A stretch of DNA of 53,247 nucleotides from Actinomycetales bacterium (lineage in GTDB: Bacteria > Actinomycetota > Actinomycetes > Actinomycetales > Kineosporiaceae): assembly GCA_012719445.1 (NCBI GenBank), contig JAAYAH010000218.1, positions 1 to 53,247 of the forward strand, given 5' to 3'. Of the stretch, positions 33,115 through 52,916 are shown piece after piece; within the stretch, counting starts at the first letter, position 1; each line of letters opens with the position of its first letter. The position numbers were made by a program, and so were the translations under genes. Below the pieces are notes generated by a model, which did not search any database, was not told where the DNA came from, and was given only the letters and a program-made list of their open reading frames with translations.

Positions 33115-34716
33115 ATGCGAGTCCTCCACGTAGCGGCTGAGTGTCACCCGCTGGCGAAGACCGGGGGTCTCGGAGACGTCGTCGGCGCCCTGCCCCGGGC
33201 GCTGGCGGCGGCGGGTGTCGACGCGCGGGTGCTGCTCCCGGCCTATCCGGGGGTGCGCGACGGGCTCGGCGCCGAGGCGCGGGAGGTCGTCGGCCGGGAC
33301 GACCTCCACGGCCATCCGGCGCGGCTCCTGGCCGGGACCGCGGCCACCGGTCTTCGGGTGCTGGCGCTCGACGTGCCGCGGCTCTTCGACCGCCCCTCCG
33401 GCGGTCCGTACCAGGCCGGGGACGGGCGCGACTGGGAGGACAACCACCTCCGGTTCGGTGCGCTGTGCCGGGCCGCGGCGACGGTCGCCGTCGACGGCGT
33501 CCCCGGCTGGCGGCCCGACCTGGTCCACGTCCACGACTGGCACGCCGGGCTCACCCCGGCCCTGCTGCGCCTCGGTGCCCGGGACGCGCCGCCCACCGTG
33601 CTGACGGTCCACAACCTGGCCTATCCCGGGCTGTTCCCCCCGGAGGCCGCGGTCGCGCTCGGCCTGTCGGAGGACCACCTCGCCGGGGCGGGGCCCGATC
33701 ACGACGGCGGGCTCGGCTTCCTCGAGGCGGGCCTGGTGCACGCGGACCACGTCACCACGGTCAGCCCCACCTACGCGCGGGAGATCCTGTCCCCCGACGG
33801 GGGCATGGGGTTCGACGCGCTGCTCCGGGCGCGCAGCGCCGGGGGTCGGCTGACCGGGATCCTCAACGGGATCGGCCCGGAGTGGGACCCCGGGCACGAC
33901 GAGCACCTGCCGGTGGACGCGCGGTACTCGGCGTCGTCCGTCGAGCGGAAGGCGGTGTCCCGGGCCCGCCTCCAGGTCGAGTTGGGGCTGGCGGCCGACC
34001 CTGGCCCCCTCCTCCTCGGCACGGTGAGCCGGCTGACCCCGCAGAAGGGCCTCGACCTGCTCCTCGACGCCCTGCCGACGCTCCTGGACACCGCACCGGC
34101 TCCGCCGACGGCCCCCGGGGTGCAGGTCGCCGTCCTCGGCCGCGGTGACGCCGACCTCGAGCGTCGCCTGACCGACGCCGCCCGGTCCCGCCCCGGCCGG
34201 ATGGCGGTCCGGGTCGACGTCGACGAGCGGCTGGCGCACCTCCTGCAGGCCGGAGCGGACGCGGTCCTGGTGCCGTCCCGGTTCGAGCCCTGCGGGCTCA
34301 CCCAGCTCTGCGGCCTCCGGTACGGCACCCTCCCGGTGGTTGCAGGTGTCGGCGGCCTCGCCGACACCGTCGTCGACGCAACACCTGCCGCCCGCGCGGA
34401 CGGCACCGCGACCGGGTTCGTCTTCGCGCCCGGGTCGGTGCCGGGGCTGCTCGACGCGGTGCGGCGGGCCGTGGCGCTGCGGGCGCGCGGCTCCGACTGG
34501 CGGCGGGTCCAGCACCGGGCCATGACCAGGGACGTGGGGTGGGGCCCGTCGGCGCGGGCCTACGCCCTGCTCTACGCCGACGTCGTGTCGGGCGCCCGCC
34601 GCCCCGTCGGCTGCGGGTCCGACGGCGCCGACCGGGGGGACGGGACCGAGCCGGCCCCGTGCCCGGAGAGGTACCGCCAGGCGCCGTCGGCGTCGAGCGG
34701 GCGGGACAGGTGGTAG
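33115..34716 (+). CDS. glgA: Glycogen synthase, GT5 type
   Basis: 533 residues. ATG 33115 starts the family N-terminus MRVLHVAAECHPLAKTGGLGDVVGALP with the KTGGLGD ADP-glucose site (residues 15-21); GTG 33109 is the alternative. HVHDWHAGL (about 141-149), VLTVHNLAYPG, TVSPTYAREI and GTVSRLTPQKGLDLLL follow, then the LVPSRFEPCGLTQL motif near residue 385. It transfers glucose from ADP-glucose (or UDP-glucose) to alpha-1,4-glucan. The last about 40 residues, beyond the usual end YALLYADVVSG, are Gly/Asp/Pro-rich and overlap the convergent EAL gene by 145 bp. A GTGA-N6-TCAC site abuts the -10. It is unrelated in strand to the downstream regulators. Confidence 0.95.
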   Translation: MRVLHVAAECHPLAKTGGLGDVVGALPRALAAAGVDARVLLPAYPGVRDGLGAEAREVVGRDDLHGHPARLLAGTAATGLRVLALDVPRLFDRPSGGPYQAGDGRDWEDNHLRFGALCRAAATVAVDGVPGWRPDLVHVHDWHAGLTPALLRLGARDAPPTVLTVHNLAYPGLFPPEAAVALGLSEDHLAGAGPDHDGGLGFLEAGLVHADHVTTVSPTYAREILSPDGGMGFDALLRARSAGGRLTGILNGIGPEWDPGHDEHLPVDARYSASSVERKAVSRARLQVELGLAADPGPLLLGTVSRLTPQKGLDLLLDALPTLLDTAPAPPTAPGVQVAVLGRGDADLERRLTDAARSRPGRMAVRVDVDERLAHLLQAGADAVLVPSRFEPCGLTQLCGLRYGTLPVVAGVGGLADTVVDATPAARADGTATGFVFAPGSVPGLLDAVRRAVALRARGSDWRRVQHRAMTRDVGWGPSARAYALLYADVVSGARRPVGCGSDGADRGDGTEPAPCPERYRQAPSASSGRDRW

Positions 34717-36872
34717 CCCTGCCCCATGGCGCAGCCCAGCCGGCGCAGGGTGTCGAGCTGGTCCTCGGTCTCGATGCCCTCGGCCACGGTCTGCAGCCTC
34801 AGCGCGCTGCCCAGCTCGATCACGCTCCGGACCACGGCCAGATCCTCCGACCCGCTGTTCACCTGAGCGATGAAGGCACGATCGATCTTCACCTGGTCCA
34901 CCGGGAACCGCCGCAGATAGGACAGCGACGAGTACCCGGTACCGAAGTCGTCCACGGCCAGGCGGACGCCGAGCGCCTTGAGCCGGTCGATCTGGTGCGC
35001 CGAGGTGTCCGGGTCGTACATCAGCGCGGTCTCGGTGAGCTCGAGGGTGAGCGTGCCGGGAGGCAGCGCCACGGCGGCGAGGATCTGCTCCAGGTGCGGG
35101 ATGAAGTCCTTGTCGACGAGCTGCCGGGCCGACACGTTGAGGTTGAGCGTCAGGGCGGGCAGGTCCTCCCGCCACCGGGCCAGCTGCCGCACCCCCTCCT
35201 GGAGGACCCACCGCCCGATGTCGACGATGAGCCCGCTCTCCTCGGCCAGGCCGATGAACGCCAGCGGCGGGACGGTCCCCCGCCGCGGGTCCGTCCAGCG
35301 CAGCAGGCCCTCCGCGCCGACCGGGTGCCCGCTGCCCAGGTCCACCACCGGTTGGTAGTGCAGCCGGAGGTCGCCCCGGCTCAGCGCGCGCTGCAGGTCG
35401 GCGAGCAGGTCGAGCCGCTCGACGGTCTCGCTGTGCATCCGCGGCTCGAAGACCGCCACCTGCGAGGCGCCGCGCTTCTTGGCGACGTACATCGCGACGT
35501 CGGCGTTGCTGAGCAGGTCGTCAGCTCCGTCGAGGTGGGTGCGGCTGTCCGCGAGCCCGACGCTGGCGCCGATCACGACGTTCCGTGAGGCGATACGGAA
35601 CGGCTTCCGCAGCGACTCGATGAGGCGCTCCGCCACGCCGACCCCGACCTCCTGGGGGACGTCGCGGAGCAGGACGGCGAACTCGTCCCCCCCGATCCGG
35701 GCCGCCGTGTCGTCGGTGCGCAGGCAGGCCCGGATCCGGTGGGACACCGCCGCCAGCAGTTCGTCGCCCGCCCGGTGCCCCAGGCTGTCGTTCACCGCCT
35801 TGAACCGGTCGAGGTCGATGAACAGGACGATGTGATCGCCGCCTTCGGCGAGGGTGTCGTGCAGCCGTTCGAGGAACAGGGCGCGGGTGGGCAGGCCCGT
35901 GACCGGATCGTGGTTGGCCAGGGTGACGGCCTCGACGGTGCGGGCGTCGGTCAGGGCGAGGCTCGCCTGCTGGGCGAACGCCGTCAGCAGGGCACGGCGT
36001 CCGCCCCGGTGCGGGTCCGCGTCCCGGTCGTCGCCCTCCGGGGCGCGGGGGACGGCCACGAGACATCCGCCGACCTCGCCGTCGACGGAGACGGGCACCG
36101 CCACGAGCCGGGTCGACCCGGTCGTGGTCTCCACCACGGCCCCTGCCGCGATCGCCTCGGCGGCGGCGTCCAGCACGGTCCTGGTCGTTCCGACGTCGGC
36201 GGCGACGTCGGGTTCGCTCCCCGAGGCGACGGTGAGCCCTCCGTCGGCGAGGGAGTCGGTGAGCAGGAGAGCCACCCGCACGCCGTCCAGCAGGTCCGCG
36301 GCCCCCGCGGTGACGGCGTCGAGGACCTCCGGCAGCGGACGTCGGCTGGACACGGCCCCCTGGATGGCCAGCAGCCGCTCCAGGAGCCGCTGCCGGGTCC
36401 GCAGCTCCTCCAGCAGCCGGAGCCGTTCGGCGGCCTCGCGCTCCTTGTCCTCGCGCAGGGCTCGCTCCGCCGCCAGGGTGCGCACGTTGCGGAGGACCAG
36501 GCCGAGCAGCTGGGCCATGGCCTGGAGCAGTTGACGCTCCTCCGCCTGCAGGGGGGAGTCCTGACGGGCGACGACCAGGACGTCGTCCCCGGAGCCGCGC
36601 AGGCTCGCCGCGGAGCCGTGCAGCGTGCCCAGCCCCGGGAGCACCACCTCGCGCGCCGGGCCGGTCAGGGGCAGGAGCTCCGCCCCGTCCTGGTCGTGGC
36701 CGAGCCCCCAGGTCGCCCGGACCCGCCCGTCGATGACGACGGCACCGACCTCTGCCTCGAGGGTCTCGGTCGCCCGCTCCACGGCCTGCTGGAGGGCGGC
36801 GCCCTCGTCCTCGGTGCCGCTGATCCCCGAGAAGTACTCGGTCAGCTGCAGGGTCGACCAGTGGTTCGGCAT
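34572..36872 (-). CDS. Cyclic-di-GMP protein with GAF, GGDEF and EAL domains
   Basis: 766 residues, soluble. Two GAF-like sensory regions (about 15-145 and 175-305) separated by a charged coiled-coil, then GGDEF (about 315-480) and EAL (about 490-735). The GGDEF signature is intact (ARIGGDEFAVLL), with an RxxD inhibitory site (RTDD) before it, so cyclase activity and product feedback are possible. In the EAL domain the name motif reads EGL (GAEGLLRW) with the Glu kept, and the DDFGTGYSSL loop is canonical. Net activity cannot be told. Its C-terminal tail overlaps glgA on the other strand. The 479 bp upstream contain a 36-bp triple repeat. ATG 36872 is the first start of the frame. Confidence 0.92.
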   Translation of the reverse strand: MPNHWSTLQLTEYFSGISGTEDEGAALQQAVERATETLEAEVGAVVIDGRVRATWGLGHDQDGAELLPLTGPAREVVLPGLGTLHGSAASLRGSGDDVLVVARQDSPLQAEERQLLQAMAQLLGLVLRNVRTLAAERALREDKEREAAERLRLLEELRTRQRLLERLLAIQGAVSSRRPLPEVLDAVTAGAADLLDGVRVALLLTDSLADGGLTVASGSEPDVAADVGTTRTVLDAAAEAIAAGAVVETTTGSTRLVAVPVSVDGEVGGCLVAVPRAPEGDDRDADPHRGGRRALLTAFAQQASLALTDARTVEAVTLANHDPVTGLPTRALFLERLHDTLAEGGDHIVLFIDLDRFKAVNDSLGHRAGDELLAAVSHRIRACLRTDDTAARIGGDEFAVLLRDVPQEVGVGVAERLIESLRKPFRIASRNVVIGASVGLADSRTHLDGADDLLSNADVAMYVAKKRGASQVAVFEPRMHSETVERLDLLADLQRALSRGDLRLHYQPVVDLGSGHPVGAEGLLRWTDPRRGTVPPLAFIGLAEESGLIVDIGRWVLQEGVRQLARWREDLPALTLNLNVSARQLVDKDFIPHLEQILAAVALPPGTLTLELTETALMYDPDTSAHQIDRLKALGVRLAVDDFGTGYSSLSYLRRFPVDQVKIDRAFIAQVNSGSEDLAVVRSVIELGSALRLQTVAEGIETEDQLDTLRRLGCAMGQGYHLSRPLDADGAWRYLSGHGAGSVPSPRSAPSDPQPTGRRAPDTTSA

Positions 36873-37351: not shown

Positions 37352-39346
37352 GTGCGCCTGATCGCGATCATCGCCACCGGTATGGACACGTATCAGACAC
37401 GTGTCGTCGCCGGTCTGACCAGGGAGCTCTCCCGGCACGGGATGGCGACCGTGGTGTGGGTGAACGATCCGTTCGTCGCCGGCCCGACCCCCGCCTTCCG
37501 GAGCTTCGTCCGCCGGACGCCGCTCACCGGATTCGTCATGATGAACTGCATGGCTCCGGCCGAGGAGCGCGACTACGAGGCGCTGTTCGAGGCGACGGGC
37601 GCACACGCCGTCCGGATCGGTGTCGCAACGTCCGGCGCGTCCTGGGTCAGGGGGGACAACCAGACCGGGATGCGGGAGCTGATGAGCCACCTCCTGGACG
37701 GGTGCGGGGCCCGGCGGGTGGTGCACGTCCGGGGCATCCCGTACCAGCCCGACGCGATGGACCGGGAGCGGGTGTTCCGCGAGGAACTGCTGCGGCGCGG
37801 CATCGCGTGCGACGAGGGCCTGTTCGTCGACGGCAGCTTCGACCGGACGGCGACCTACCGGGGGGTCCGGGAGCTGCTCCGGCGACGCACGGACGTGGAT
37901 GCGGTGGTGGCCGCGAACGACCTGTCCGCGCTCGGTGCCCTGCGGGCTGTCCGCGACACCGGTCTGCGGGTCCCCGAGGACGTCATGATCACCGGCTTCG
38001 ACAACGAGGGTGTCGCTGCGGTCAACTGGCCGGGGCTGACAACGGTCGACCAGGATCTGGAGGGCCAGGGGGAGGTCGCGGCGCGGCAGCTGGTGGCCGA
38101 GATCGAGGGCGCGGCTCCGGTCGGCGAGCTGGTCGTCCCCTCCCGGCTGGTGATCCGGGGGTTCACCTATCCGTCGGGGGCCTCCCTCGCCGACCGGCTG
38201 GCCACGGTGACGGACATGGCGCAGGAGGCCTGTGACCAGTTGGCCGTCCAGGACGCCGTCCTCGGCCTGAGCCGGCACATCCACCACTGCGCCACCCTGG
38301 ACGAGGTGGTCGAGGTCCTGGTCACCCAGTTCGACGAGCTGGGGATCAACCGGTGCTTCGTCGCCCTCCGCGAGGACGCGGCCCAGCCGTCCGTCGACGA
38401 TCACGAGGTGGCGGTCCGCCTGGTCCTCGACTACCGCGACGGGCGCTTGCACACCCCGTTGCCGGGACCCTTCCCGGCCCGGCTGTTGCTCCCCGTGGAG
38501 CTGCACGGCGAGCTCGCCGTCGGCGCGCTGATGATGCAGCCCCTCTCGGTGGCGGGACAGGAGTTCGGCTACCTCCTGTTCGAACGGGTCGGCGGGCACG
38601 TCAAGGCCAGCGAGGCGCTGCACCAGGACCTGAGCCTGACCCTCGAGGCGCTGTTCATCACCGACCAGCTGCGCAACCAGGCGGCGAGGCTGGAGGCGCT
38701 GGTCTCCCGCAGGACCCGGGAACTGGAGAGCGAGGTGGCGACGCGGCAGCGGGCGGAGGCCGAGCTGAAGCTGGCCAACGACGAGCTGCACCGGCTGCTG
38801 ATGCGGGACGGTCTGACCCGGATCGCCAACCGGTCGGCCTTCCAGCGTCATCTGGAGCACCACTGGCAGCTCCACCTGCGCGAGGGCAGGGACCTCGCCC
38901 TCCTGATGATCGACATCGATGCCTTCAAGAACTACAACGACCACTACGGTCACCTCGGCGGGGACAACGCGCTCCGGGTCGTTGCGTCGTGTCTCAACGA
39001 GGCCGTCCGGGAGCCCCAGGACCTCGCCTGCCGCTACGGCGGCGAGGAGTTCGCCGTCCTGCTCCCGGAGGCCACCGCCGACTCAGCCCTCGCGGTGGCG
39101 AGGAGGTTCCAGACCCTGCTGGCCGCCGAGGCCATCCCGCACGCCGCGTCCCCGGTCTCCGACGTGGTCACCGTCAGCATCGGCGTCGCCATGGCCCGGA
39201 ACACCGGGGGTGCGCAGTGGCAGTCGCTGGTCGAGGCGGCGGACCGGGCCCTCTACCGGGCGAAGGCCCTCGGCCGTGACCGCATCGTCGGGCTCGACGC
39301 GGCCGGCCATGGCGTCGTGATGGCCGGAGCCGACGCGCCCGGGTGA
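37352..39346 (+). CDS. LacI-type sugar-sensor fused to a GGDEF diguanylate cyclase
   Basis: 664 residues, GTG start. Residues 1-275 are a periplasmic-binding-protein-type sensor as in LacI repressors (LIAIIATGMDTYQTRVVAGLTREL; VAANDLSALGALRAVRDTGLRVPEDVMITGFDNEG) but with no helix-turn-helix and no signal peptide, so the sensor is cytoplasmic. A GAF-like domain (about 290-430), a coiled-coil ([34 protein letters not shown], about 450-483) and a GGDEF domain (about 485-655, RYGGEEFAVLLPEA) follow. The feedback RxxD is absent: the position has ExxD. It probably makes cyclic-di-GMP in response to a sugar or nucleotide ligand. It starts 480 bp from the GGDEF-EAL gene, divergently, so both may share control. 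Confidence 0.88.
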   Translation: MRLIAIIATGMDTYQTRVVAGLTRELSRHGMATVVWVNDPFVAGPTPAFRSFVRRTPLTGFVMMNCMAPAEERDYEALFEATGAHAVRIGVATSGASWVRGDNQTGMRELMSHLLDGCGARRVVHVRGIPYQPDAMDRERVFREELLRRGIACDEGLFVDGSFDRTATYRGVRELLRRRTDVDAVVAANDLSALGALRAVRDTGLRVPEDVMITGFDNEGVAAVNWPGLTTVDQDLEGQGEVAARQLVAEIEGAAPVGELVVPSRLVIRGFTYPSGASLADRLATVTDMAQEACDQLAVQDAVLGLSRHIHHCATLDEVVEVLVTQFDELGINRCFVALREDAAQPSVDDHEVAVRLVLDYRDGRLHTPLPGPFPARLLLPVELHGELAVGALMMQPLSVAGQEFGYLLFERVGGHVKASEALHQDLSLTLEALFITDQLRNQAARLEALVSRRTRELESEVATRQRAEAELKLANDELHRLLMRDGLTRIANRSAFQRHLEHHWQLHLREGRDLALLMIDIDAFKNYNDHYGHLGGDNALRVVASCLNEAVREPQDLACRYGGEEFAVLLPEATADSALAVARRFQTLLAAEAIPHAASPVSDVVTVSIGVAMARNTGGAQWQSLVEAADRALYRAKALGRDRIVGLDAAGHGVVMAGADAPG

Positions 39347-40735: not shown

Positions 40736-43294
40736 TCAGCTCACGCAGTCCCGGATGGCCGCGGCGTCGAGGGGCCCGCCGAGTTCCGAGCGGACGACCG
40801 CGCGCAGGTCGGGGTCGGTCCTCAGGTCCTTCAGCGCTGCCGGTGGGTCCTCCGTGGTCTCGTCGCCGAGGTGGACGACGTCGTCGGGGTGGTGGGCCAG
40901 GTGTTCGGCGACCTCGGGCCAGCGCAGCCGGAGGATGGTCCACAGCGCGAGCGTCTCCCGCGACGTGGCGCGTCCCTCCAGTCTCCGGATCCGGCGGGTC
41001 AGGTCGTAGGCCATGATCGCTCTCTTGAGCGCTCTGGGGTTGGGCTCCATCAGGTCGGTGTACCGGCTGAGGAAGTGCTCGGTCGCGCTCAGCGGTGAGA
41101 GGTCCTCGAGCCGGTCGACGACGTCCCTGGCCAGGGCGACCTGAGCGCTGTGGTCGACGCTGCCGAAGATCGAGACGGCCTCCTCCTCGTTCCGGGCGCG
41201 GGCAAGGCTCGCGCGGGTCGCGGCGAGGGAGTCGGCCTCGGTGGAGCGACGGTCCGGCGCGTTCGGGGAGCCGGGCAGCCTCGTCGCGGCGACGGGGTCG
41301 GTGGTCCCGAGGAGGTAGGTGAGGTAGTTCGCCTGCCGGGTCCTGCTCATCTCGGGGACCGGAACGGTGAGCTGGAAGATCTTGTCGAGGAACAGGTACC
41401 CCAGCGGTCGGCCGATGTCCCGGACGGACTCGCGCAGGGAGGCGAACCGTTCCTCGTAGCTGCTGCGGATCCACCGGCCGTCGGCGGAGACCAGGAAGAA
41501 CACGGCGGGACGCCGGTCGGACGACGTCGCGGGGGACGTCCGGCGGATGACGGTCGTCACGGCGTCGAGGAGTTCGACGACGTAGGCGGGCTCGCACCGG
41601 TCCAGGTCGTCGACGAGGAAGAGGACGTTACGTCGGCTCCTGGACGTGAGCCAGGCGAAGTGGGCCGCCACCTGGTCCATGGGGCGCGGCTGGGACTTCT
41701 CGAAGATCCCGGCCCCGGTGGCGGAGTCCCAGAAGAGGAGCCGAGCCATCACCCGGCAGCCTCCCCAGACGAGTCCGATGGATCCCGCGGCGCCCAGGAG
41801 GGTGCACAGGGTCTTCAGGGCTCCGTCGGTCGCCGGTCCGGTGCAGGCCGCCCTGAAGAGGGCGATCGCGAGGACGAGGAAGATCAGGAACGTGAGGGAG
41901 TGCAGGGCGACGTTGCGGCGCACCCGTTCCGTCGTCTCCCGGAGCCGGAAGGTCCATCGTGCCCACCAGTGGGTCCTGCCGACGACGGCCCGCCGCAGCG
42001 CGGTGAGCAGGGCCCACCACGCCGGTCCGGCATGGGACTGGCGCCAGGCGTCGAACTCGACGACGAGCCACGCCGAACGGTCCAGTCGCGTGGAGAGGAG
42101 TCGGAGCAGGGTGCTCTTCCCCGACCCCCATCGACCGTCCAGGTGGATGACGAAGGACTGGCCGGAGTGCTCCGGATCCACGGACAGCCGCTGGAGACGT
42201 TGCGCGAGGATCTCGGCGAGGAGCGACCGGCCGAGCAGGTCGTTGATCGTCGGGTTGTCGGGGCGCCAGCGCACGCTCTCCCGGACGTCCGCCGTCGCCA
42301 GTGACCCGAAGAGCTGCTGTTCCAGAGCCTTCGCGTCGATGCGCATGGACGCGAAGAGAGGGTGCGACAGGGCCGACTGCGGTGCCCTGATCAGCGCGAT
42401 CAGGAGATGCGCCGGATCGACCGTCTCGCTGCCGAGTTCCCCGGCGATCGCCGGGGCCAACTCGTCGAGCACCTTGCGGGTGTTGGCGCTGCGCGGCAAC
42501 TGGCCCGACGGCCGCTCGCGATCCGGTGCGGACCCGGGCTTCTTCGCCTTGTCGATGGTCGCCGCGACATCACGAGCGTGGTCGAGGTCGATGGTTCCGA
42601 CGGCTGCTCGGATGCACGGCGACTGGTCCTGGAGAAGGGCGAGGGCCAGGTGGGTGGTGCCGACGAAGGGGTAGCCGACCCATCGTGCCTCCCTGGTGGC
42701 ACGCTCGATCACCCGGAGCGAGTCCTCGCTGAACCTCGCCGTCGGATCGAGGAGTGCGCCCGGTGCGTCCGTGTAGTCGGGATACTTCGCTGCGAGTCGC
42801 TGGTAGAGGCTGAGCGAGAGGACGAACACGCGAAGGCAGGAGCCGCGGGCGGCCGTGGACAGGAAACCAGAGGCCAGAGCCTCGAGCGCGATGTCGAAGT
42901 CGAGCTGCCCCGCCCCGGTGCCCAGCAACGGCGCATTGATCGTCATCCGGCTCGGCTCCCCGGTCAGGGATCCCAGCCGGGTGCCGATCCGGTGAATGAT
43001 GTCGTGCGATCCCTCGTTGCCCCGAACGCTCGCCGCGTAGACGATCTCCTGGGCCTTCACCTGCTCGTCGGGGAGCGGGAGAACGGTGATGTCACCCCAC
43101 TCCAGGGTGGTCGTGAGCTCCGGGGCACGCACTCTCTGCACGGCTTCGGCGGCATACGGCGAGAGAGTGCCGGAGGTACTGCACGGCACGACCACGACGT
43201 CGGCGTCGGTGCCGAACACGTCCCCGTGGGCCAGGCGGACCACTCCGTGGTGGCGTGACTGCTGCGGGATCTTCGACTCCGTCTGGGACTGCAT
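40736..43294 (-). CDS. Membrane-associated KAP P-loop NTPase with macro-like and Clp-N-like domains
   Basis: 852 residues from ATG 43294 (GGGGGGAG just upstream). Residues 17-165 resemble a macro (ADP-ribose/nucleotide-binding) domain: HGDVFGTDADVVVVPCS at the start and INAPLLGTGAGQLDFDIALEAL at the phosphate-loop position. Residues 187-335 look like two Clp-N repeats (SLRVIERATREARWVGYPFVGTTHLALALL; ANTRKVLDEL...VDPAHLLIALI), as in ClpA/ClpC N-domains. From 350 a KAP NTPase has Walker A DGRWGSGKST (386-395) and Walker B VLFLVDDLDRC (557-567), with two membrane helices between (about 465-484 and 494-515). KAP NTPases act in membrane-linked signalling and defence. This single gene with its own AT-rich promoter region could be a standalone defence or stress module. 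Confidence 0.85.
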   Translation of the reverse strand: MQSQTESKIPQQSRHHGVVRLAHGDVFGTDADVVVVPCSTSGTLSPYAAEAVQRVRAPELTTTLEWGDITVLPLPDEQVKAQEIVYAASVRGNEGSHDIIHRIGTRLGSLTGEPSRMTINAPLLGTGAGQLDFDIALEALASGFLSTAARGSCLRVFVLSLSLYQRLAAKYPDYTDAPGALLDPTARFSEDSLRVIERATREARWVGYPFVGTTHLALALLQDQSPCIRAAVGTIDLDHARDVAATIDKAKKPGSAPDRERPSGQLPRSANTRKVLDELAPAIAGELGSETVDPAHLLIALIRAPQSALSHPLFASMRIDAKALEQQLFGSLATADVRESVRWRPDNPTINDLLGRSLLAEILAQRLQRLSVDPEHSGQSFVIHLDGRWGSGKSTLLRLLSTRLDRSAWLVVEFDAWRQSHAGPAWWALLTALRRAVVGRTHWWARWTFRLRETTERVRRNVALHSLTFLIFLVLAIALFRAACTGPATDGALKTLCTLLGAAGSIGLVWGGCRVMARLLFWDSATGAGIFEKSQPRPMDQVAAHFAWLTSRSRRNVLFLVDDLDRCEPAYVVELLDAVTTVIRRTSPATSSDRRPAVFFLVSADGRWIRSSYEERFASLRESVRDIGRPLGYLFLDKIFQLTVPVPEMSRTRQANYLTYLLGTTDPVAATRLPGSPNAPDRRSTEADSLAATRASLARARNEEEAVSIFGSVDHSAQVALARDVVDRLEDLSPLSATEHFLSRYTDLMEPNPRALKRAIMAYDLTRRIRRLEGRATSRETLALWTILRLRWPEVAEHLAHHPDDVVHLGDETTEDPPAALKDLRTDPDLRAVVRSELGGPLDAAAIRDCVS

Positions 43295-43483
43295 GGCTCC
43301 CCCCGGGCAATGCGATCGATGAGTTGGTCGCCGGTCCGCGCACACCAGCCGGCGATCAGCCGCTCATGGGTCCCGACGACGTCCATCAGCCCGAAGCGCT
43401 CCCTCACTCGGCCCGTCAGAACCACGGAATGAACTATCTGTGATGCAAACTTACCGCTGCGTGTGGGATCTGTGGATGTGTTA

Positions 43484-43511
43484 CAGAGAGATGAGTAGTA
43501 ATTACTCTCTG
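43484..43511. promoter_or_regulatory. AT-rich inverted repeats in the KAP upstream region
   Basis: CAGAGAG (43484-43490) pairs with CTCTCTG (43505-43511). The palindrome AGTAATTACT lies between them. The 333-bp gap before the KAP start (43295-43627) has an AT-rich core at 43440-43540, unlike its surroundings, and no gene. Confidence 0.45.
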
Positions 43512-43627
43512 GTAGGGAATGGAGATCTAGGTCCTTTGTGTCGGCTTCCGGGATCGTTCAGGACGCTGTCCACGTCGTGACCGGGCCACGACCCCCACGG
43601 GAACCGAGAGGTCCTGGGTGAGGGCTG

Positions 43628-50924: not shown

Positions 50925-52916
50925 TCACGTGGTCACGCCGATCGGGTCGGCGCCTGGGGCCGGCTGCTCCTCGTGGGTCGGCCACTGGTTCTCCGAGTTC
51001 TTGTCGGAACGACGGTTGTCACACCAGGCGAGGAACCGGTCCGGAGGCAGCGGACGGGAAAGGTGGTAGCCCTGCGCGATGTCGCAGCCGTAGGTGGCCA
51101 GTGTCTCCATGACGTCGGACGTCTCGACCCCTTCGGCGATGACGGTGAGTCCGAGGTTCTTCCCGAGATCGGTGATACTGCGGACGATCTGCGCATTCTC
51201 GGGACTCGTGGCCATGGTGATGACGAAGGAACGATCGATCTTGAGATCGGTGACGGGAAGCGTCCTCAGCTGGGCCAGACTCGTGTAGCCGGCTCCGAAG
51301 TCGTCGATGGCGATCCGGATCCCACGGTCGTTGAGCTCACACAGGACCTGCTTTGCCCGCACCGGCTCGGTCATGATCGCCGACTCGGTGACCTCGAGAT
51401 CCAGGAGACCAGCCGGTACCCCGTACTTGTCGAGCAGCGACGAGATGTAGTCGCACAACCGGACGTCCAGGAGATTGCGGGCCGACAGGTTCACCGCGAT
51501 GGGCATCGGATGACCGGCGTCAGCGAACACCCGTGCCTGGGCCAACGCGGCGTCCAGGATGTACTGCGTCAACGGTCCGATCAGGCCGGTGCTCTCGGCG
51601 AGCGGGATGAACTTGTCGGGCGGAATCATGCCCTGTTCCGTCTGCCAGCGGACCAGTGCCTCTGCCCCGACCACCTCGCCGCTGACCAGGCCGACCTTGG
51701 GTTGGAAGTGCAGGAGGAGCTGCTCGTGGTCCAGGGCCCGGCGCAGGTTGCCGAGCATCGCCAGACGCTCGGGGGAGTGCTTGTCGATCTCCGAGTCGTA
51801 GGTGACGACGCCGGCGCTCCGCCGCTTCGCCACATACATGGCCACGTCGGCACGTTGCATCAGGGTGGCCAGATCCTTGCCGTGTGCCCCGGAGACGGCG
51901 ACACCGATGCTCGCCTCGACGGCCAGGTCAACCCCGCCGACCAGGAACGGTTCGGTCAATGCCGCTCGGATCTGTTCGGCGATCGCGACCACCGTGTCGA
52001 CGCCGTCCACGTCGGGGAGCAGCACCGCGAACTCGTCCCCGCCCAGCCGGGCCACGGTGTCGCCGTCACGCAGTTCTGGAACCAACCTGGGACCGATCTC
52101 GGTCAACAGGCTGTCGCCGACGTCGTGGCCGAGGGTGTCGTTGACCTCCTGGAACCGGTCGAGGTCGATGAGCAGGAGTCCGGTCGTGACGCTGCCGCGC
52201 TCTGCGGTGTCCTGGAGCTGTTCGAACCTCTTCTTCAGCCCTCGTCGGTTCATCAGACCGGTCAACGTGTCGGTGACGGACAGCTCCCGCTCACGCTCCA
52301 GCGCATCGCTCAGTTGGTGACGCATCGCCGATATCGGCCAGATCACCATGATCGTGGACACCATGAGCATGCTCAGATGCAGCGCCAGTTCCCCGGCTCG
52401 GTCGCCGCCGTTCCAGAAGATCACCGCTCCCGCGACGATCGCGGCCAGGGTCTGCACGTATCCGCTCCGCCGCCCGTGGAACAGGCCGCAGAAGACGGTG
52501 GGCAGGATGAGAACCAGGGTGCCGACCCGTGCCCCCGTGGGATCCGTACCGGCGAGCTGGGCGATCGTGATGGCGACGATCCCACCCGCGGGGACGAACG
52601 TCGCGATGACCGGTAACAGTCGTTGGCGCAGCAGCACCAGCACCGTGACCCCGCAGACGACACCCATGTCGATCAGGTAGACCACGCGCCAGGTTCCACC
52701 CCGCATACAGCCGGGGATCAACAGCGCCAGGACACACATGGCACTGCAGAGCAGCAGCGCTATGACCATCGCCTGGCAGCGGGGATCGCTTCCCCGCCAC
52801 CGGTAACGGTCCTTCACCCTCGGACTATCGGCACCGAGAGCCCGTCGGTTCACCATCAACGGATGGCAATCCCCTGAAACCGTAGAGACTCCGGTTGATG
52901 TGATCTTGCTGCTCAC
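50925..52916 (-). CDS. Membrane GGDEF-EAL cyclic-di-GMP protein
   Basis: 663 residues if GTG 52916 is used; ATG 52856 would give 643 and is equally plausible because neither has a strong Shine-Dalgarno. Six hydrophobic helices (about residues 48-200) form an N-terminal membrane sensor. GGDEF follows (about 215-385: LGGDEFAVLLPDV, with RxxD site RDGD before it), then EAL (about 395-640: GAEALVRW, VTESAIM, DDFGAGYTSLAQL, AEGVETSD). All expected catalytic residues appear intact in both domains, so it may make or break cyclic-di-GMP. The tail is hydrophilic. The gap 52917-53172 contains a 7-bp hairpin (52960-52977) but no gene. Confidence 0.9.
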   Translation of the reverse strand: MSSKITSTGVSTVSGDCHPLMVNRRALGADSPRVKDRYRWRGSDPRCQAMVIALLLCSAMCVLALLIPGCMRGGTWRVVYLIDMGVVCGVTVLVLLRQRLLPVIATFVPAGGIVAITIAQLAGTDPTGARVGTLVLILPTVFCGLFHGRRSGYVQTLAAIVAGAVIFWNGGDRAGELALHLSMLMVSTIMVIWPISAMRHQLSDALERERELSVTDTLTGLMNRRGLKKRFEQLQDTAERGSVTTGLLLIDLDRFQEVNDTLGHDVGDSLLTEIGPRLVPELRDGDTVARLGGDEFAVLLPDVDGVDTVVAIAEQIRAALTEPFLVGGVDLAVEASIGVAVSGAHGKDLATLMQRADVAMYVAKRRSAGVVTYDSEIDKHSPERLAMLGNLRRALDHEQLLLHFQPKVGLVSGEVVGAEALVRWQTEQGMIPPDKFIPLAESTGLIGPLTQYILDAALAQARVFADAGHPMPIAVNLSARNLLDVRLCDYISSLLDKYGVPAGLLDLEVTESAIMTEPVRAKQVLCELNDRGIRIAIDDFGAGYTSLAQLRTLPVTDLKIDRSFVITMATSPENAQIVRSITDLGKNLGLTVIAEGVETSDVMETLATYGCDIAQGYHLSRPLPPDRFLAWCDNRRSDKNSENQWPTHEEQPAPGADPIGVTT

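What the first reader, a model, noticed from the sequence alone, without database searches (positions are those of the whole stretch)
40736..43294. Macro-like + Clp-N-like + membrane KAP NTPase in one protein
The sequence shows an intact Walker A (DGRWGSGKST) and Walker B (FLVDDLDRC) around two membrane helices, preceded by a Clp-N-like repeat pair and a macro-like domain with a GTGAG loop. KAP NTPases and macro domains both occur in known phage-defence and stress systems. The combination could couple nucleotide-signal sensing (ADP-ribose, NAD products) to membrane action, with Clp-N as a substrate or adaptor handle. The gene stands alone in an otherwise patchy region with its own AT-rich promoter.
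Basis: partly seen in the sequence, partly recalled or inferred. Interest (0 to 1): 0.75.

Follow-up and report, generated by a model that had tools for sequence, protein, structure and literature searches.

The report
Membrane NTPase with swappable sensor heads
This bacterial gene joins a membrane-anchored energy-using switch, of a kind known from anti-phage proteins, to an unusual front end made of a chaperone-type protein-binding domain and a probable but unproven macro-like domain, and distant relatives of the switch carry quite different front ends such as an immune-type TIR domain or a protease.

Summary
The observation largely holds. Window 40736-43294 (minus) is an intact 852-residue gene with a KAP-family P-loop NTPase (Pfam 90.4 bits, cut-off 20) interrupted by two hydrophobic segments, preceded by a complete ClpC-type N-terminal domain (residues 186-332, both repeats). 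The macro-like domain (about 16-174) is plausible but unproven: no Pfam hit, block order right, score only marginally above shuffles, AlphaFold models too poor to decide. Even if it is a macro fold, the VNAAN and GGGV blocks of canonical macro domains are absent; both phosphoarginine-pocket glutamates of Clp_N appear lost too. So 'ADP-ribose sensing' is not supported. The main new result: the KAP part recurs, at 28-41% identity, behind unrelated front ends: TIR+WD40 (a Solirubrobacteraceae MAG), a trypsin-like peptidase (two species of one genus), and two unclassified ones. That constant-engine, variable-head layout is typical of NTP-dependent bacterial conflict systems, and KAP proteins PifA, QatA and Tmn are known in phage defence. 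The gene is solitary, without recognisable defence genes beside it, and my searches found no other protein with this head. Best reading: a membrane-anchored conflict or stress switch, new variant of a known kind; function untested.

The parts
40736..43294 (-). whole gene, 852 aa: macro-like (?) + Clp_N + KAP NTPase with inserted membrane segments
   Evidence: open frame; Pfam; codon composition
42773..43249 (-). residues 16-174, possible divergent macro-like head; GDVFGTDADVVVV at 24-36 and GTGAG at 125-129
   Evidence: block order in hhalign alignment, marginal profile score, post hoc signature; no Pfam hit; fold model inconclusive
42299..42739 (-). residues 186-332, ClpC-type N-terminal domain (two Clp_N repeats), pocket motifs GTTH (212-215) and DPAH (293-296) instead of GTEH
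40739..42277 (-). residues 340-852, KAP engine shared with TIR-, trypsin- and other-headed relatives
42110..42139 (-). Walker A, residues 386-395 (DGRWGSGKST)
   Evidence: core residues invariant in the 5-sequence alignment
41750..41911 (-). two membrane segments inserted between Walker A and B (about residues 462-481 and 491-515)
   Evidence: hydropathy; second one weaker
41594..41620 (-). Walker B, residues 559-567 (FLVDDLDRC)
   Evidence: DLDRC invariant in 5 of 5
43421..43540 (-). AT-rich upstream patch, presumed promoter or operator region
   Evidence: lowest-GC 100-bp windows of the window; sequence; inverted repeats CAGAGAG/CTCTCTG and AGTAAT/ATTACT inside it

Best explanation
A single-protein, membrane-anchored, NTP-driven conflict or stress switch. 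SHOWN by sequence: a KAP NTPase engine with a hydrophobic hairpin between Walker A and B; a complete ClpC-type N domain in front of it; the same engine joined elsewhere to other, unrelated heads (TIR+WD40, trypsin-like peptidase). INFERRED: the N-terminal head is the variable sensing or effector part. The Clp_N arm captures a protein or peptide (not phosphoarginine in the canonical way); the macro-like head, if it is one, binds a nucleotide-type ligand without canonical ADP-ribose hydrolysis. Capture releases the KAP engine to bind and hydrolyse NTP and assemble at the membrane, where movement of the hairpin disturbs membrane function and stops growth of an infected or damaged cell. Membrane damage is what I recall for the KAP protein PifA (no call); for Tmn the mechanism is called unexplored.
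For: KAP and Clp_N over curated cut-offs. Walker motifs and hydrophobic hairpin intact. The KAP region matches L032, L038, L033 and L042 over its length (BLAST E 1.2e-96 to 1.3e-43, 28-41% identity) while the five N-terminal parts show no BLAST similarity to each other (best E 4.5). Heads identified by Pfam: TIR_2 and WD40 in L032, Trypsin_2 in L038; the trypsin form is kept in a second species of the same genus (L083, by reading its translation). This protein and the four relatives all match PifA, QatA and PDC-S20 defence models in part. PMC8195603 section 7 (read) lists TIR, caspase, trypsin and other heads on the NTPases of one class of conflict systems (NTPase-FGS) and says the STAND NTPase there may be displaced by a KAP ATPase, known in anti-phage immunity; PMC7159879 (passages) reports ClpN repeats, as rare variants, where a beta-propeller is usual in one class of such systems, and macro domains among effectors. 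PMC11846954 (passage) calls Tmn a KAP NTPase with two transmembrane domains. Gene sparse: no match at 1e-12 in the 12 other genomes of its family.
Against: No defence gene nearby: 10 neighbours, 0 PADLOC matches at 1e-5; Pfam neighbours are signalling and metabolism genes. No second copy of the macro-like head found in the genome, so no homotypic partner. The macro assignment is unproven. The variable-head argument rests on six proteins, one of them cut at its start (L032). In qatABCD, mutation or deletion of the KAP protein QatA did not fully disrupt defence (PMC12424860, passage), so a KAP protein in a defence locus need not be its essential part. I have no functional data for any of these proteins. 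Relatives also stand in contexts that look ordinary as far as read.
Confidence: 0.42

Rival explanations
1. A proteostasis adaptor: the Clp_N domain mimics the ClpC N domain, competing for or presenting ClpC substrates and adaptors at the membrane; the KAP engine drives release. The role is stress handling, not immunity.
For: Whole ClpC-type N domain; the genome also has two Clp_N proteins in frames of 247 and 306 aa, in which I see no AAA+ part, so decoy-like Clp_N proteins occur in this organism; the 247-aa one aligns with residues 187-329 of our protein (26.6% identity).
Against: No Clp_N was reported in the relatives of the same KAP engine that were scanned (L032, L033, L038, L042), so Clp handling is not the engine's general purpose; both GTEH motifs of the phosphoarginine pockets are changed, against 27 of 27 ClpC N domains that keep both.
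Confidence: 0.25
2. One reading: the macro-like head senses ADP-ribose or an NAD product and switches the membrane NTPase, with Clp_N as handle.
For: Order of macro blocks (GDV...DADVVVV; TINAPLLGTGAG) is right in an hhalign alignment over 114 columns and the signature is met in 0 of 200000 shuffles, though the pattern was written after seeing the sequence. A relative carries a TIR head, and TIR domains make ADP-ribose or cyclic derivatives from NAD (PMC9503650, passages).
Against: VNAAN and GGGV blocks absent; profile score reached by 47 of 3000 shuffles; hhalign score reached by 3 of 150 shuffles and 7 of 110 decoys, and a LacI-type control scored higher, 19.19 against 18.15, over 16 columns; structure inconclusive.
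Confidence: 0.15
3. A degenerate or recently fused gene without selected function in this combination.
For: No other protein with this head found in the searches made; divergent head motifs.
Against: Intact 852-codon frame with host-like codon composition, intact Walker A and B and hydrophobic hairpin, own AT-rich upstream region.
Confidence: 0.1

Closest known systems
KAP-family P-loop NTPases (Pfam PF07693; PifA, Tmn, QatA)
   Same: Walker motifs, hydrophobic hairpin inside the NTPase domain; partial match to PifA, QatA and PDC-S20 models
   Different: Long N-terminal head; in 7 of 16 viral KAP loci, those in which my script found both motifs in one frame, Walker A lies only 40-62 residues from the start of the frame. 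QatA curated score not met (54.2 against 600); no PADLOC match among ten neighbours
STAND-type and ternary NTP-dependent conflict systems (PMC7159879, PMC8195603)
   Same: Constant NTPase with variable TIR, trypsin, macro or ClpN modules; KAP named there as an alternative NTPase
   Different: Not a STAND NTPase by score (nSTAND_NTPase5 24.4 bits against 34); solitary gene, no EAD or effector partner found
ClpC/ClpC1 N-terminal domain and ClpC2-like stand-alone Clp_N proteins
   Same: Both helical repeats align along their length
   Different: GTEH pocket motifs are GTTH and DPAH; fused to a KAP NTPase rather than a AAA+ unfoldase
Macro domain (PF01661)
   Same: Order of blocks and GTGAG at the STG-loop position
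   Different: No Pfam match; VNAAN and GGGV blocks missing; fold undetermined

Membership tests
KAP NTPase (PF07693) | curated Pfam score | tested here: met
   90.4 bits against 20
KAP NTPase (PF07693) | membrane segments inserted in the P-loop domain between Walker A and B | tested here: met
   hydropathy maxima from residues 462 and 491, Walker A 386-395, Walker B 559-567; second segment weaker (1.47); membrane insertion itself not shown
KAP NTPase (PF07693) | NTP hydrolysis | not testable with these tools
   motifs intact only
Clp_N (PF02861) | curated score and tandem repeat | tested here: met
   29.7 bits against 20.7; two stretches in the isolated region; ClpC N-domain structures match 187-327
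ClpC N domain, phosphoarginine reader | pocket glutamates (E32, E106 of ClpC; that they lie in the GTEH motifs is recalled numbering) | tested here: not met
   GTTH and DPAH here; both motifs kept in 27 of 27 ClpC N domains read, of 28 loci given to the script; role of E32/E106 and pArg pockets from PMC12583610 passages
Macro domain (PF01661) | curated Pfam score | tested here: not met
   no match listed at E up to 10
Macro domain (PF01661) | macro fold | tested here: inconclusive
   single-sequence AlphaFold model pLDDT 51.8, pTM 0.52; no Foldseek match at 0.001, best Z 4.3
Macro domain (PF01661) | VNAAN and GGGV ligand-site blocks | tested here: not met
   22 of 22 and 21 of 22 canonical sequences; absent from residues 1-182 as read
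QatA / qatABCD | NCBIfam equivalog score; partner genes | tested here: not met
   54.2 against 600; ten neighbours without PADLOC match at 1e-5
PifA | match to the PADLOC PifA model along its length | tested here: inconclusive
   E=1.3e-15, two stretches, the best covering model positions 16-123 of 720; no curated cut-off is given and the second stretch was not shown
Tmn | orthology to Tmn | not tested
   no Tmn model was listed among the matches; no Tmn sequence was compared
STAND/EAD conflict system | variable effector or sensor heads on a constant NTPase | tested here: met
   five proteins whose heads show no BLAST similarity on one engine, plus a second species with the trypsin form; distant similarity between the unclassified heads not excluded
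STAND/EAD conflict system | STAND NTPase score | tested here: not met
   nSTAND_NTPase5 24.4 bits against 34; NACHT 15.3 against 26.7
STAND/EAD conflict system | partner effector sharing the adaptor domain in the same genome | tested here: inconclusive
   macro-like head: only itself in its own genome at E 0.01; Clp_N: other strong matches are ClpC/ClpB-type frames and two frames without a visible AAA+ part
Anti-phage defence gene | location near defence genes | tested here: not met
   10 neighbours, 0 PADLOC matches; Pfam annotation
Anti-phage defence gene | protection from phage | not testable with these tools
   needs plating assay

The most novel reading that the evidence does not exclude
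The KAP engine defines an undescribed family of one-protein, membrane-anchored immune-receptor-like switches, scattered over distant bacterial groups (the named ones are Solirubrobacteraceae and Pyrinomonadaceae MAGs), whose heads are exchanged as in NLR/STAND receptors. In this member the sensing head is a macro domain stripped of its ADP-ribose site plus a ClpC N domain stripped of its phosphoarginine pockets, that is, two housekeeping readers turned into baits or decoys that guard nucleotide or protein-quality pathways which phages attack.
Probability: 0.22. Interest if true: 0.75.

Novelty: new variant of a known kind. Interest (0 to 1): 0.5.

Why it matters
KAP membrane NTPases protect bacteria from phages by mechanisms that are still open (Tmn's is called unexplored in PMC11846954). 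A clade in which one KAP engine is attached to a TIR, a protease or a Clp_N-bearing head suggests that the engine is a general membrane switch that heads plug into, which makes the mechanism testable by swapping or deleting heads in a harmless laboratory strain.

Tried and rejected
Macro assignment by sequence: Pfam at E up to 10 gave nothing; PDB phmmer of residues 1-185 nothing; hhalign against 22 macro domains gave probability 1.2% and score 18.15, reached by 3 of 150 shuffles and 7 of 110 decoys, though none of them combined that score with 100 or more columns. In the first, smaller control (8 shuffles, 10 other proteins) one shuffle nearly tied (18.13) and a LacI-type protein scored higher (19.19, 16 columns). 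The 22 come from 30 macro loci fetched; the other 8 were dropped because my start pattern did not find them. The motif signature was written after seeing the protein and misses 5 of 22 canonical domains; it is only suggestive.

Macro assignment by structure: both AlphaFold jobs had one sequence and low confidence; Foldseek gave no match at E 0.001 and VIA-align best Z 4.3 against baculovirus P35, with no macro domain among the 50 rows shown; I count this as no information. The second model was not searched.

Relatives of the head: 6 other of 296 class genomes hit residues 1-185 at E<=0.01; the four I read (L044, L045, L046, L048) are three long multi-spanning membrane proteins and a frame that I judge spurious, so rejected; L047 and L049 were not read. 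Plasmids and viral contigs: no relative.

Full-length relatives: (396 genomes; 389 match, the best listed non-self matches being Clp_N alone or KAP pieces; as a rule only 2 candidates scored per genome and a capped list, so weak relatives can be missed), plasmids 17 records with none covering 80%, phages 3 records matching the Clp_N part, viral contigs none with the single protein; with the five-member profile, 16 distant viral KAP loci. A1 and A3 searches over groups scored only up to 5, 6, 7 or 24 candidates per genome, so frequencies are lower bounds. L039, L041, L084 and L085 (E 1e-21 to 1e-28) are more distant KAP branches and were left out of the family; L040 (E 1.7e-43) is cut by its contig end and was left out.

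Solved structures for this KAP branch: none convincing (best E 0.0044, an ABC-F P-loop).

Literature: searches for KAP NTPase + macro domain + Clp-N, two of three and Clp N-terminal domain + macro domain + NTPase + Actinobacteria + anti-phage, four of five listed no paper that I could see to be on this combination. The original KAP paper (PMC416466) and PMC7985843 are not held.
Full report
What is there. The window's minus strand carries an uninterrupted frame from ATG at 43294 to a stop at 40736 (852 residues), with host-like codon composition (GC3 0.90) and a purine-rich stretch just before the ATG. Pfam finds KAP_NTPase (90.4 bits, cut-off 20) and Clp_N (29.7 bits, cut-off 20.7) and nothing for the first 180 residues. 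Walker A is at 386-395 and Walker B at 559-567, with a strong (from 462) and a weaker (from 491) hydrophobic segment between them: the layout named in the title of the founding KAP paper (seen only in a reference list).

Clp_N. The region is a whole ClpC-type N domain. Solved ClpC and ClpC1 N domains match residues 187-327 with E down to 2.1e-7, and both repeats align with ClpC sequences of the order (six shown). ClpC carries two phosphoarginine pockets, with E32 and E106 at them (PMC12583610, passages); that these are the glutamates of the two GTEH motifs is my recalled numbering. All 27 ClpC N domains that my script could read, of 28 loci given, keep GTEH in both repeats; here they are GTTH and DPAH. 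So this arm is unlikely to read phosphoarginine in the known way; the hydrophobic substrate groove described in that paper was not examined.

Macro-like head. The blocks run in macro order: a strand ending in GDV at the usual GDI place, DADVVVV where macro domains have VDAIVN, and TINAPLLGTGAG where they have TVAFPSISTGAYG. hhalign aligns 114 columns in that register. The statistics are weak: 2.5 bits, reached by 47 of 3000 shuffles (highest 7.1) but by none of 110 windows from 21 real genes of this region; the hhalign score is reached by 3 of 150 shuffles and 7 of the 110. A hand-made signature is met by 17 of 22 canonical domains, this protein, 0 of 200000 shuffles and 0 of 110 decoys, but I wrote it after seeing the sequence. 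AlphaFold with a single sequence gave pLDDT 51.8, pTM 0.52 and an alternating strand/helix order that would suit a macro domain (recalled topology), with no usable structural match; the 334-residue model was worse. I call the macro assignment likely-looking but unproven. If it is right, it is a divergent one: the VNAAN block (22 of 22 canonical) and the G[GA]G[VI] loop (21 of 22) are missing here (read), so ADP-ribose hydrolysis of the usual kind is not expected.

Relatives. A scan of one genome for each of 84,980 species with exact peptide patterns, which finds close relatives only, returned two loci, both matching the KAP part. L032, a Solirubrobacteraceae MAG, is TIR_2 + WD40 + KAP, its start cut by the contig end. 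L033, a Pyrinomonadaceae MAG, has a 180-residue unclassified front. A profile of these three (A1) then found L038 in the window's class, with a Trypsin_2 domain (E=1.7e-13) before KAP, and L042 in the phylum of L033, with an unclassified front; a five-member profile (A3) found L083, the trypsin form in a second species of L038's genus. The tallies at E<=1e-20 were 3 of 296, 3 of 249, 2 of 199 and 4 of 61 genomes, including the starting genomes and some more distant KAP branches. In BLAST comparison the KAP parts match over their length (28-41% for this protein against the others, E 1.2e-96 to 1.3e-43), while the front parts show nothing (best E 4.5). Viral KAP proteins seen here have the P-loop close to the start of the frame, without such heads (7 of 16 viral loci readable by my script).

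Context. The gene has a convergent NMT1-type binding-protein gene on one side and a DUF1805 gene 333 bases upstream; further out are GGDEF/EAL, AraC-type, GH6 and arylamine N-acetyltransferase genes. None of ten neighbours matches a defence model. None of the 12 other genomes of the family held has the gene at E 1e-12 (all candidates scored). The relatives' neighbours look ordinary as far as I read translations and scanned a few with Pfam; they were not scanned against defence models, and two could be of interest (a weak, below-cut-off PNP_UDP_1 match about 3.3 kb upstream of L033's gene, and an Exo_endo_phos gene beside L042). The best reading of 'alone' is a solitary gene, not part of an island.

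Mechanism. One constant membrane NTPase with exchangeable TIR, protease or binding heads is the logic described for NTP-dependent conflict systems: PMC8195603 section 7 (read) lists TIR, caspase and trypsin heads on the NTPases of NTPase-FGS systems and says that a KAP ATPase may take the STAND position there; PMC7159879 (passages) reports ClpN repeats, as rare variants, where a beta-propeller is usual in one such class, and macro domains as effectors. KAP proteins PifA, QatA and Tmn belong to phage defence (QatA: PMC12424860 passage, where loss of QatA did not fully disrupt defence; Tmn; PifA: model name, function recalled). I therefore favour a membrane-anchored conflict or stress switch in which the Clp_N arm, and perhaps the macro-like head, sense a protein or metabolite state and license the NTPase to act on the membrane. 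The engine, the hydrophobic hairpin, the Clp_N arm and the exchange of heads are shown by sequence; trigger, ligand, membrane effect and phage protection are inferred.

Weighing. Against this stand the lack of any defence neighbour, the small number of relatives (six proteins in all, one cut at its start), search settings that undercount, and the unproven head. A proteostasis role through Clp_N is the main rival; it explains the Clp_N arm but not the relatives that lack it.

Noticed in passing
window 43421-43540: Most AT-rich 100-bp stretch of the whole window (GC 0.45-0.46), just upstream of the gene, with short inverted repeats (CAGAGAG/CTCTCTG; AGTAAT/ATTACT) that could be an operator.
   Followed up: partly
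window 34572-36872, 37352-39346, 50925-52916: Three cyclic-di-GMP genes (GGDEF, EAL) within about 18 kb; the middle one fuses a LacI-type periplasmic-binding-like domain to GGDEF.
   Followed up: no
own genome G000:C96:58361-58735 and G000:C27:15042-15668 (L104, L107): Two frames (247 and 306 aa) with paired Clp_N matches and no visible AAA+ part, like ClpC2-type decoys; the second reads GTVH and TEAH at the pocket motifs.
   Followed up: partly
L081 4565-8774: The KAP relative L042 follows two closely spaced uncharacterised frames on the same strand (255 aa without family; 447 aa with a DUF3761 match), possibly an operon; an Exo_endo_phos gene lies on the other side.
   Followed up: no
L033 5370-6347: About 3.3 kb upstream of the KAP relative, a 325-aa frame with a weak, below-cut-off PNP_UDP_1 match (E=0.0056); PNPase-type domains are listed as effectors in PMC8195603.
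   Followed up: no
L032 1-3006: TIR + WD40 + KAP in one protein in a Solirubrobacteraceae MAG; its TIR also matches a SAVED-TIR defence model. The start is cut by the contig end.
   Followed up: partly
L080 7604-9832 and L083: Trypsin-like peptidase fused to the same KAP engine, kept in two species of one genus of the window's class.
   Followed up: partly
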